Shown here one piece after another: positions 39,957 through 60,055 of a stretch of DNA of 64,000 nucleotides. Under the pieces are notes generated by a model. That model saw nothing but the letters and a program-made list of their open reading frames with translations, made no database searches and was not told where the DNA came from. This DNA comes from Kutzneria chonburiensis (GTDB lineage: Bacteria; Actinomycetota; Actinomycetes; Mycobacteriales; Pseudonocardiaceae). The stretch lies in NCBI RefSeq assembly GCF_028622115.1, contig NZ_CP097263.1, positions 2,542,001-2,606,000 on the forward strand, read 5' to 3'. Position 1 is the stretch's first letter; the number at the start of each line of letters is the position of its first letter. Made by a program: the position numbers and the translations under genes.

Positions 39957-40011
39957 TGCAGGGAAGGACGCCTTACCTGCGTTGGACGCAGGTAAGGCGT
40001 CCTTCCCTGCA
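39957..40011. terminator. Very long perfect hairpin between convergent genes
   Basis: A 26-base arm (39957-39982, starting TGCAGGGAAGGACGCC) pairs without mismatch with 39986-40011 around the three-base loop TGG. It begins nine bases after the carboxylase stop and lies 107 bp past the stop of the convergent regulator. It can terminate both strands but is far longer than usual and may be a repeat-derived element. Confidence 0.75.
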
Positions 40012-55239: not shown

Positions 55240-55586
55240 AATTCCCTCCGAAATGCGCGACAATTCGGTCGCACTGCGGAGATGAGGCTATATGATTCGA
55301 TGGTGCGGGGTTGCCCACTGAATGGAGTAAAAGGTGGGGTACGCTCGCGAAGGGGCTCATCGGATGAGGGGAGGATGGGCAGGGCGGGTCGGTGGTAGGT
55401 TGGAGCGGCGGGTTGGGTTTGGTGGGGTTGTTTGGCGTCTGGGGTGGGGTTGTTTGGTTTATGGGTCGATTTGGTGTGGCGGGATGGCGGCGGTTGGGTT
55501 GGATTGGGTGGCCCGCCCGCCCGCCCTTTGCTGGGGTTGGGTTTGGTGCGCGTGCTGCGTAGTTTTCCGGGGGTTCTTCGGTTTAT
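55240..55586 (+). other. G/T-rich arm left of the HNH element
   Basis: About 350 bp without a credible gene. From about 55365 to 55590 the plus strand is strongly G/T-rich, unlike the rest of the window. The mirror region right of the HNH gene (57200-57345) is C/A-rich. Frames here translate to Trp/Gly/Val-rich nonsense. Confidence 0.6.
55456..55479 (+). repeat. 24-bp direct repeat, copy 1
   Basis: These 24 bases (GGTTTATGGGTCGATTTGGT plus GTGG) recur without mismatch at 55580-55603, where they run into the left arm of palindrome A. The first copy looks like an abandoned or partial end of the same element. Confidence 0.85.
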
Positions 55587-55603
55587 GGGTCGATTTGGTG
55601 TGG
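55580..55603 (+). repeat. 24-bp direct repeat, copy 2
   Basis: Second copy of the 24-bp sequence at 55456-55479, 124 bp away. It overlaps the outer left arm of palindrome A. Confidence 0.85.
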
Positions 55604-55705
55604 AGCCTCTGCGCGATGGCACAAAGGGCTGATTAAGGGCAGGCGAAGCCTGCCCTTTGCCCTGTCAATTGTACGCCATCGCGCCCCTCCACACAAAATC
55701 GACCC
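55587..55705. repeat. Palindromic element A, left of HNH gene
   Basis: This 119-bp imperfect palindrome has outer arms at 55587-55605 and 55687-55705 (19 bp, one mismatch). A middle stem is GCGCGATGGC (55611-55620) with GCCATCGCGC (55675-55684), and an inner stem is AGGGCAGGC with GCCTGCCCT around GAA. It lies 118 bp beyond the HNH stop. It matches element B (57083-57201) in reverse orientation over nearly its whole length. Confidence 0.85.
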
Positions 55706-55823
55706 AATTCGGGAGTTGGCGGCGGGGGTGTGGCGGGAATGGCGGTGGCTGGGTTTTGACTCCCGCTGTGCGCCCTTTTTGTGGTGGCTGTGGGAAGTCC
55801 TTTTCCCGGTGCCCGTTCCCCGG

Positions 55824-56966
55824 TTAGTGCCGCATGGGGCGGGTGGTGTGGTGGCGGCCGGCCGGGGTGATCCAGTGGGTGGTGCCATCTGAATCCTGAG
55901 TCACTGTGTAGTTGTCGTGTTTGCGGTGGTGGTGCCAGGTGCAGAGCCCTTGCAGGTTGGTCGCCTCTGTGGGGCCCTCTGGCCAGGGGGTGATGTGGTC
56001 GTGTTCCTGGATGGGCAGGGTGCAGCCGGGGGCGGTGCAGGTCCCGCCGGCCCGAGCAACGGACGTCTCCTTCATCAGCGCCGTGGGCCGGTAGGTGTCG
56101 GTGCTGATCGCGGAGATCTGCTGGTACTCATCCAGCAGGAGCCCTCGGAATGGGCCGTGCATGGCCAGTTCCCGTGCTGCCTCGGCCGCGATGGGGCCGT
56201 AGCCGGCGAGCTGGCCGGGGTCGTTGGTGAGGCCGAGCAGGGTCTCCATGGAGATGGTGACGAAGGTGCGGACGTTCCAGGTGGTGTGCTTGCCCCGCAA
56301 GCGGTCCCAGAGCACATCGGAGCTTTTCTGGTCGGTGGTGCGGTCGTCCTTCGGGAGGGACTTGGCGTCGGCGCAGATCTGCTGGAACAGCTGGTGAGCC
56401 TCAGCAGCCGGGAGGATCCAGGTCAGCTTGGCCATACCGTCGGGCAAGGCCGAGAGTCCGACCTGCCGGTCGTCCTTGGCCTTGTGGCAGCGCTGCTCGT
56501 GGCCATCGGGGTCGGCCTTGGCGACCAGCGCGGTGGCCTTGCGACACACCTGAGTCCGGGTCATACCACCGGCCTGCTCGGCCAGGGCCTGGTCGACGTC
56601 GGCGACCTGGGCCGGGTCGGCGAGGTGGCGGGTCCGCTCGTGGACCGCCGCGAACCGGGCGAGGTCGATCTCGCCCCGGCGGAACCGCTCCGCCAGCGCA
56701 GGGTGAGTCTCCAGGGCGGCGGCGACCTCTTGCGACCGGGCCAGGGCCGGCTCCGAGACCTTCGTGGCCATCGCCAATTCGGTGAGGTCGTCGATGTGGT
56801 TGAGGGCCTCATGTTCGGCCCATTCACACACCGCCCGCACCTTCCGGGCCACCCCCACAAAATTGACCAGATCTTCTTGCGTCAGGCTCGCCGGATCCAC
56901 ACCCACCACCAGATCGAACATGGCCCCAGTGGGTTCCATGCTCTCAATCTCGCGGGTGAGTTCCAT
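55824..56966 (-). CDS. DUF222 / HNH endonuclease (13E12 repeat family)
   Basis: This 380-aa protein has an N-terminal DUF222 domain (LVVGVDPASLTQEDLVNFVG near residues 19-38; long helical region with WILPAAEAHQLFQQICADA). A C-terminal HNH nuclease follows: CTAPGCTLP, then HDHITPWPEGPTEATNL and CTWHHHRKH, giving Cys pairs and the His-Asn-His core. The family includes the REP13E12 repeat proteins of mycobacteria, often multicopy and mobile. The ATG at 56966 is favoured; an upstream frame reaches 57071 without good starts. It is flanked on both sides, at almost equal distance, by inverted copies of a 119-bp palindrome. Confidence 0.9.
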   Translation of the reverse strand: MELTREIESMEPTGAMFDLVVGVDPASLTQEDLVNFVGVARKVRAVCEWAEHEALNHIDDLTELAMATKVSEPALARSQEVAAALETHPALAERFRRGEIDLARFAAVHERTRHLADPAQVADVDQALAEQAGGMTRTQVCRKATALVAKADPDGHEQRCHKAKDDRQVGLSALPDGMAKLTWILPAAEAHQLFQQICADAKSLPKDDRTTDQKSSDVLWDRLRGKHTTWNVRTFVTISMETLLGLTNDPGQLAGYGPIAAEAARELAMHGPFRGLLLDEYQQISAISTDTYRPTALMKETSVARAGGTCTAPGCTLPIQEHDHITPWPEGPTEATNLQGLCTWHHHRKHDNYTVTQDSDGTTHWITPAGRHHTTRPMRH

Positions 56967-57082
56967 ACCTTTGAGAATACTCGAACACAAGATCGAACAC
57001 GAATCCCTAACGGGTGAATCCCGTCCGACGGAAAGGCTTTTCTTTCTCCCCGTCACACCGCAACACGGCAACTCTAACCAGT

Positions 57083-57201
57083 CGCGTGGATTTTGTGTGG
57101 AGGGGCGCGATGGCGTACAATTGACAAGCCAAGGGCAGGCTCGTCCTGCCCGCTTTTAGCCCTTGGGCCATCGCGCAGAGGCTCCACACCAAATCCACGC
57201 G
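57083..57201. repeat. Palindromic element B, right of HNH gene
   Basis: This 119-bp imperfect palindrome has outer arms at 57083-57102 and 57182-57201 (20 bp, one mismatch) and an inner GGGCAGG/CCTGCCC stem. Its reverse complement is nearly the same as element A. The outermost bases differ from A (CGCGTGG versus GGGTCG) yet pair within each copy. It lies 116 bp upstream of the HNH start. Confidence 0.85.
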
Positions 57202-57342
57202 ACCACCCCGAATTAATCCCCCCACCCAAACCAACCCCACCCACCCATGGCAAGATGTGGATCTTGAACGCCGCACAGACCCAACCACGGGCGACCCCGC
57301 CAACCCGACACGCCAGCCCACCAGCCAGAACACCCCAAAAAC
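57202..57342. other. C/A-rich arm right of the HNH element
   Basis: About 140 bp, strongly C/A-rich on the plus strand, mirror the G/T-rich left flank. No gene is visible. The composition shift ends where the Fur/KatG promoter begins. Confidence 0.5.
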
Positions 57343-57360
57343 TTGATTGATTCCAGATTA
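57343..57360 (+). promoter_or_regulatory. Fur-family promoter/operator candidate
   Basis: TTGATTGATTCCAGATTA lies 17 bp before the GTG of the furA-like gene. TTGAnt...ATTCCAG resembles the FurA-controlled furA-katG promoters of mycobacteria and Streptomyces as I recall them. It probably combines a promoter and an autorepressor site. Confidence 0.5.
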
Positions 57361-57377
57361 TCCGCCAGACTGCCGCG

Positions 57378-60055
<2,678 letters not shown>

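What the first reader, a model, noticed from the sequence alone, without database searches (positions are those of the whole stretch)
55587..57201. DUF222/HNH gene enclosed by two inverted 119-bp palindromic elements: candidate compact mobile or homing unit
Elements A (55587-55705) and B (57083-57201) are each 119 bp, each an imperfect palindrome, and nearly the reverse complement of each other. They flank the HNH gene at 118 bp and 116 bp. Seen in sequence: both copies and their symmetry. Known: DUF222/HNH proteins belong to the 13E12 repeat family, which is multicopy and mobile in mycobacteria. Inference: the hairpins are ends recognised by the HNH nuclease or by a host enzyme, as in REP-associated or homing-endonuclease systems. 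No transposase or integrase is encoded, so mobility would be non-classical.
Basis: partly seen in the sequence, partly recalled or inferred. Interest (0 to 1): 0.85.

Follow-up and report, generated by a model that had tools for sequence, protein, structure and literature searches.

The report
Hairpin-ended mobile HNH nuclease gene
A lone HNH-nuclease gene sits between two matching DNA hairpins and is repeated many times in Kutzneria-type genomes as a mobile unit with no known transposase, which gives a testable handle on a large bacterial gene family of unknown function.

Summary
Both palindromes are real. The gene plus its two inverted hairpins is a dispersed repeat of about 1.6 kb: 15 complete copies plus one one-ended relative in this 10.4-Mb genome, and at least 53 more gene-bearing copies in four congeners. 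At 3 of 3 traced host loci, the window's included, relatives have the same neighbours without the element; at four other host loci a relative is occupied too. Hairpins covary (15 of 41 pairs changed on both sides) and are nearly invariant (diversity 0.005 and 0.016) while four-fold coding sites differ by 0.245. No target-site duplication was found; the host has no Y1 transposase. Copies exchange sequence, and sites shared between species carry genome-specific element sequence, suggesting overwriting. A second genus has DUF222-HNH units with unrelated terminal hairpins of similar layout; four other DUF222 groups show none. Best reading: a hairpin-ended element whose DUF222-HNH protein acts on the hairpins to start copying by recombination. 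Mobility is well supported; nuclease action on the hairpins is inferred. The papers searched describe no hairpin ends for DUF222/13E12 repeats in what I saw of them.

The parts
55587..55705 (.). Hairpin A, at the 3' end of the gene; outer stem GGGTCGATTT/AAATCGACCC; its loop differs from that of the other host copies
57083..57201 (.). Hairpin B, at the 5' end of the gene; outer stem GTCGCGTGGATTT/AAATCCACGCGAC (pairing extends to 57081-57203)
55824..56966 (-). DUF222-HNH gene, 380 aa plus stop, from ATG (M36 of the longest ORF 55824-57071); start chosen by comparison with relatives
55386..55586 (.). G/T-rich tract outside hairpin A; homology to the G002 empty site stops at 55385
57202..57305 (.). 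Tract outside hairpin B, C/A-rich next to the hairpin; homology to the empty site resumes at 57306
55446..55479 (+). Partial extra copy of the outer arm of hairpin A in the left tract (94% identical to 55570-55603)

Best explanation
The region is one copy of a self-contained mobile DNA element: two inverted terminal hairpins of about 119 nt enclosing a single DUF222-HNH nuclease gene. Shown: it is a dispersed unit; occupied sites differ between species; the ends are conserved, covarying hairpins; the gene is intact and under purifying selection; copies exchange sequence. Inferred: the DUF222 part binds the hairpin (perhaps extruded or single-stranded), with the unpaired bases on the outer strand as recognition or cutting point. 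The HNH part breaks DNA there, and repair copies the element, either into another hairpin-bearing site (overwriting, which keeps copies and hairpins alike) or, rarely, into a new intergenic site, without target duplication and with G/T-rich filler at the junctions.
For: 16 close DUF222 copies in the host genome, 15 with both hairpins. 69 gene-bearing loci in 5 genomes of the genus: 50 with two full hairpins, 17 with one, 2 with none in the fetched DNA; in 50 of 50 two-hairpin loci the two ends are inverted. Empty syntenic sites at 3 of 3 host loci whose flanks were traced. Covariation in 41 hairpins: 152 cells changed on both sides, 11 on one side; score 0.236 against 0.084 shuffled, 0 of 500 shuffles as high. 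Diversity among 15 copies: 0.245 at four-fold sites, 0.023 at second codon positions, 0.005 and 0.016 in the hairpins. r2 falls from 0.24 within 10 bp to about 0.08, permutation p 0.001. Zinc- and catalytic-type Cys/His residues invariant in 10 diverse proteins. Protein and hairpin distances correlate in G003 (r 0.88 and 0.69) and G006 (0.44 and 0.73). In G013, of another genus, hairpins of unrelated sequence sit inverted at both ends in 12 of 15 distinct loci.
Against: No direct evidence that the protein touches the hairpin. In 21 fetched loci of four other multicopy DUF222 groups (G014, second family of G006, G042, G039) no inverted repeat spans the gene (the same test found the Kutzneria hairpins in 5 of 5 loci). 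In G012 a 55-nt palindrome lies on the 5' side in 10 of 10 distinct loci and on both sides in one. So hairpin ends are not needed for DUF222 repeats to multiply. Within the host genome protein and hairpin distances do not correlate (r 0.11 and 0.17, p 0.31 and 0.23). Many copies in G006, and some in G003, have Q where the middle N of HNH is expected. Intact genes at 25% silent divergence are unusual for a purely selfish element. Several sites are occupied in more than one species, so movement is not fast. No base-exact empty site was obtained.
Confidence: 0.55

Rival explanations
1. Passenger model: the hairpin pair is mobilised in trans by an unrelated host or mobile recombinase, and the HNH gene is cargo.
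For: Binding is not shown. An outside enzyme other than Y1 was not searched for, so one is possible.
Against: All 31 hairpin matches in the host belong to the 16 gene copies; very degraded solo hairpins could be missed. Gene and hairpins vary together in G003 and G006, though not in the host. Unrelated hairpins flank the same protein family in another genus.
Confidence: 0.2
2. Resident gene family: the copies serve the host and are kept alike by ordinary gene conversion; new sites arise rarely.
For: 16 of 16 host copies are intact at high silent divergence. Five groups of sites are shared between species, with the gene in the same orientation where one is present.
Against: Copy number differs between congeners, from 0 to at least 26; empty sites; paired, nearly invariant hairpins at both ends.
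Confidence: 0.17
3. RNA-level elements: the hairpins are untranslated-region structures (attenuators, stability elements) of the gene.
For: Each lies 116-118 bp from the gene; strong folding.
Against: They are inverted copies at the two ends. One-sided changes are few (11 against 152 two-sided cells). No terminator-like site was found in 55300-57400. Rfam gave only three miRNA matches far below their gathering scores.
Confidence: 0.05
4. REP/BIME-like sequences spread by a RAYT-type Y1 transposase.
For: Palindromic and dispersed.
Against: Y1_Tnp: no match in 6 of 7 genus genomes, the host among them; the seventh (G003) has a match to 33 of 121 positions only.
Confidence: 0.01

Closest known systems
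REP13E12 / 13E12 repeats of mycobacteria (DUF222-HNH proteins)
   Same: Paired with HNH endonuclease/DUF222 in PMC10589994 (passage read); multicopy; frequent gene conversion (PMC13061034, preprint, passages read)
   Different: Inverted terminal hairpins, covariation and empty sites are shown here for Kutzneria-type genomes. Mycobacterial copies were not fetched or compared. A passage of PMC13061034 says these regions 'lack defined biological function'.
IS200/IS605 elements and RAYT/REP systems
   Same: Hairpins at the ends; no target duplication (recalled)
   Different: No Y1 transposase in the host; hairpins inverted at the two ends; the only enzyme inside is an HNH-type nuclease
HNH homing endonuclease genes
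   Same: Selfish-looking HNH nuclease; overwriting or conversion of sites (recalled for the family)
   Different: Many unrelated intergenic sites, not one conserved target; structured ends travel with the gene
Classical insertion sequences and MITEs
   Same: Inverted ends, dispersed copies
   Different: No recognised transposase inside; no target-site duplication found; ends are themselves palindromes; no gene-less copies detected in the host

Membership tests
DUF222 / 13E12 repeat family | DUF222 domain | tested here: met
   PF02720, E 3.8e-21, 76.1 bits against cut-off 24.4
DUF222 / 13E12 repeat family | C-terminal HNH-type motif with zinc ligands | tested here: met
   C310, C315, H324, C342, H345, H346 and H350 invariant in 10 proteins from 7 genomes. 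The Pfam HNH model did not match the window protein at E <= 1 and was below cut-off for L072; the middle N is not invariant
DUF222 / 13E12 repeat family | Multicopy, recombining | tested here: met
   16 close copies; decay of r2 with distance
Classical insertion sequence | Known transposase gene inside | tested here: not met
   The only protein between the hairpins tested against Pfam matches DUF222 alone; NCBIfam none
Classical insertion sequence | Target-site duplication | tested here: not met
   46 copies in four genomes, offsets 0-29 and lengths 2-9: only small excesses of 2-bp matches among thousands of combinations; decay in old copies is not excluded
RAYT/REP or IS200/IS605 | Y1 transposase in the genome | tested here: not met
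   PF01797: no match in the host, G001, G002, G004, G005, G006; 33 of 121 positions in G003
Homing endonuclease gene | Insertion at one conserved target sequence | tested here: not met
   Flanks unrelated beyond about 5-30 bp on the 5' side, apart from a weak G/T-rich motif
Homing endonuclease gene | Nuclease cuts the cognate empty site | not testable with these tools
   Needs biochemistry
MITE | Internal DNA without a coding gene, mobilised in trans | tested here: not met
   All 31 host-genome hairpin matches belong to the 16 gene copies

The most novel reading that the evidence does not exclude
DUF222-HNH proteins define a new class of transposable element: an HNH nuclease, with no DDE, tyrosine, serine or Y1 enzyme of its own, recognises structured terminal hairpins and spreads the unit by break-induced copying without target duplication, overwriting older copies in a homing-like way. 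Hairpins of unrelated sequence but similar layout, with five unpaired bases on the outer strand, are found in at least two actinobacterial genera.
Probability: 0.4. Interest if true: 0.88.

Novelty: new variant of a known kind. Interest (0 to 1): 0.72.

Why it matters
DUF222 proteins occur in up to dozens of copies per genome in this order (29 of 41 genomes with a match, at least 42 in one), and a passage of PMC13061034 says the mycobacterial REP13E12 regions lack a defined function. Defined ends, empty sites and a minimal one-gene unit turn that open question into a direct biochemical and genetic test. If the HNH nuclease is the mobilising enzyme, it would be a route of DNA mobility with no recognised transposase.

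Tried and rejected
Structure prediction with a two-sequence alignment gave pLDDT 46.8 and pTM 0.30; unusable, so no fold search was run. A phmmer search of PDB sequences gave one weak hit to a nanoantibody chain. Target-site duplications: none convincing. Plasmids: no blastn match to 55500-57300; tblastn gave 7 plasmid and 8 phage records at 26-39% identity over 28-59% of the query, none covering 80%. A 23-base hairpin pattern had no match in viral contigs. PADLOC and NCBIfam: none. Rfam: three sub-threshold miRNA matches. The five distant DUF222 genes of the host (L047-L051) show only gene-level similarity, not a recent repeat unit. A simple ungapped palindrome finder did not report the window's own two hairpins, whose stems are interrupted, so its negatives are not relied on; the blastn self-complement test, which found the hairpins in 5 of 5 Kutzneria loci, was used instead. 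MFE scanning of 120-nt windows was uninformative at this G+C. The idea that insertions fall only between convergent genes was dropped: of 46 two-hairpin copies with both neighbours called, 18 convergent, 20 tandem, 8 divergent. Four-gamete failures alone could reflect recurrent change at this divergence; the decay of r2 with distance is the argument used.

Selections and leftovers: of 87 distinct hairpins reduced to 50 non-redundant ones, I chose 41 for the covariation alignment; the nine left out were not scored. Of 27 G013 hairpin ends in distinct loci, 19 were aligned. Fetched but not analysed: flanks of L068-L071 and most of L188-L207; L247 was only in the scripts' data; L266 and L267 were only scanned with the weak finder.

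Papers: passages of PMC10589994, PMC13061034 (a preprint) and PMC2323391 were seen with 'find'; all others were seen only as search listings. The statement that hairpin ends or movement are not described rests on those searches of one open-access library and on what I saw of it. Gordon et al. 1999, the original REP13E12 description, was seen only in a reference list.

Full report
What is there. Both palindromes are at the stated places. Between them is one gene on the minus strand; from ATG at 56966 it encodes 380 aa with a DUF222 domain and a C-terminal HNH-type motif whose Cys and His residues are invariant in ten proteins from seven genomes. The Pfam HNH model itself did not match it.

It is a repeat unit. 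The palindrome has 31 matches in the host genome and the protein 16 close copies at 75-100% identity, besides five distant DUF222 genes at 32-33%. Fifteen copies carry both hairpins in the same inverted layout; the sixteenth (L067) keeps only the 5' hairpin. Outside the hairpins similarity is lost: in G003 within about 5 bp; in the host within about 20-30 bp on the 5' side, and on the 3' side after shared tracts of about 12, 55 or 105 bp in different copies. No gene-less hairpin passed the blastn threshold in the host, apart from a partial arm beside the window's own copy.

Relatives. The protein was sought in the host and 59 relatives. Four congeners carry clear relatives at E <= 1e-100: G001 8, G002 2, G003 17, G006 26. 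Only 30 first-look candidates per genome were scored, so these are lower bounds. G004 and G005 have none, nor do the 53 genomes outside the genus at that threshold. Of the 69 gene-bearing loci, 50 have two full hairpins, 17 one and 2 none within the fetched DNA; L118, L153 and L154 hold hairpin matches but were not counted as gene-bearing. Of 66 loci recognised by an HNH motif search, 62 have an open frame of 368-400 aa from a Met; L113, L114 and L115 are shortened and L150 runs off its contig. L107, L117 and L152 were missed by that motif search and not examined for intactness.

Movement. At 3 of 3 host loci whose flanks I searched, relatives have the same neighbouring genes without the element. 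Window locus: gaps of 191, 339 and 352 bp in G002, G001 and G006 against about 1.9-2.0 kb in the host; G003 is rearranged there, and in G004 and G005 only the furA-side gene was found. L055 locus: 112 bp in G002, about 0 in G003, 63 in G005; in G006 and G001 gaps of about 590 and 720 bp hold other DNA. L056 locus: 238, 360, 84 and 103 bp in G003, G001, G006 and G005; G002 has lost the left side. The intergenic DNA is too diverged for a base-exact empty site. The first 50 bp outside the hairpins are G/T-rich (G 0.40-0.48, T 0.32-0.38), fading by about 150-200 bp, and these tracts are not in the empty sites. Other intergenic regions of the window (8 divergent, 17 tandem, only 2 convergent) are not G/T-rich. 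Direct repeats at fixed offsets in 46 copies: only small excesses of 2-bp matches. The nearest called genes lie outside the hairpins in the loci examined, a method that would not by itself reveal a gene split by the element.

The ends are structured. Forty-one chosen distinct hairpins from five genomes share three main stems plus a tip. With the structure I named, 95.1% of cells pair, 15 of 41 pairs have changes on both sides, 152 cells are changed on both sides and 11 on one; the covariation score is 0.236 against a shuffled mean of 0.084 (0 of 500), and sliding the partners removes it. The structure was read from the same alignment, which favours it over the slid versions, and cells count sequences, not events. 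The scarcity of one-sided changes such as G-U suggests pairing in DNA rather than RNA (inference). Within one genome the 5' and 3' hairpins can have different outermost stems, each still complementary. The tip has an alternative pairing.

Selection and exchange. Among the 15 host copies diversity is 0.245 at four-fold sites, 0.023 at second codon positions, 0.06 and 0.14 in the spacers, and 0.005 and 0.016 in the hairpins. Association between variable sites falls with distance (r2 0.24 within 10 bp, about 0.08 beyond 30 bp; permutation p 0.001), as expected if copies exchange sequence. Five groups of sites are occupied in more than one species by flank similarity: L063-L102-L146-L153, L062-L103-L116, L054-L101-L118, L066-L117-L128 and L107-L150. 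L118 and L153 are hairpin matches without a recognised gene. Only one flank supports L054-L101, L054-L118, L063-L153, L066-L128 and L107-L150. Where a gene is present its orientation is the same (read by hand). Yet the window protein is 63-66% identical to the G003 copies at such sites and 92-96% to the other 14 complete host copies, while the flanking DNA is about 71-89% identical. Ancestral insertion with later overwriting is the simplest reading; repeated insertion at hot spots is not excluded.

A wider pattern, with limits. DUF222 is found in 29 of 41 genomes at E <= 1e-15. I fetched extra loci from several DUF222 groups. In G013, of another genus, 12 of 15 distinct loci have hairpins of unrelated sequence (matches of 116-135 nt) at both ends in inverted orientation; three have one within the fetched DNA. 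Nineteen of 27 such hairpins align at 90% mean column identity, but only 1 of 37 predicted pairs covaries, so structure there rests mainly on complementarity. The hairpin recurs in 10 of 12 genomes of that genus; whether it flanks DUF222 genes was checked only in G013. Both hairpin types fold with an outer stem, five unpaired bases on the outer strand and a second stem. In G012 a 55-nt palindrome lies on the 5' side in 10 of 10 distinct loci and on both sides only in L217. In G021 one of four loci (L246) has palindromes on both sides, different from each other. In G005 three of four loci show palindromes of about 120 nt upstream only. G014 (6 loci), the second family of G006 (6), G042 (4) and G039 (5) show no inverted repeat spanning the gene, though single loci have short palindromes (control). 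So hairpin ends are not universal among DUF222 repeats.

Known relatives. Mycobacterial REP13E12 repeats are the closest named kind: a passage of PMC10589994 groups 'REP13E12/HNH endonuclease/DUF222', and passages of PMC13061034 report frequent gene conversion among them and no defined function. I did not fetch mycobacterial copies.

Verdict. Mobility of a hairpin-ended DUF222-HNH unit is well supported (my estimate about 0.9). That the protein acts on the hairpins is inferred; the full mechanism is put at 0.55.

Noticed in passing
L099 2403-2481; L107 2497-4867; L111 3612-3675: In G003 the 3' hairpin match of three elements is broken off within its inner part; the L107 insert (about 2.2 kb) holds two ORFs that look like transposases by eye (276 and 382 aa). 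Insertion sequences may target the hairpin tip.
   Followed up: partly
window 55386-55586 and flanks of most copies: G/T-rich tracts, reading inward, on both sides of the elements, with a weak shared motif (G-run, T-run, GGGTGG) just outside the hairpins; origin unexplained.
   Followed up: partly
L214-L218, L260-L265 (G012): A conserved 55-nt palindrome just upstream of each DUF222 gene, in 9 of 10 distinct loci only on that side.
   Followed up: partly
L224, L225, L226 (G005): Upstream repetitive region with imperfect palindromes of about 120 nt beside a different multicopy DUF222 group.
   Followed up: no
L073, L074 and the gene-side DNA of L075: Runs of short repeated units beside the gene in some G001, G002 and G006 elements.
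   Followed up: no
window 39957-40011: Another strong uninterrupted palindrome (score 26), not connected with the finding.
   Followed up: no
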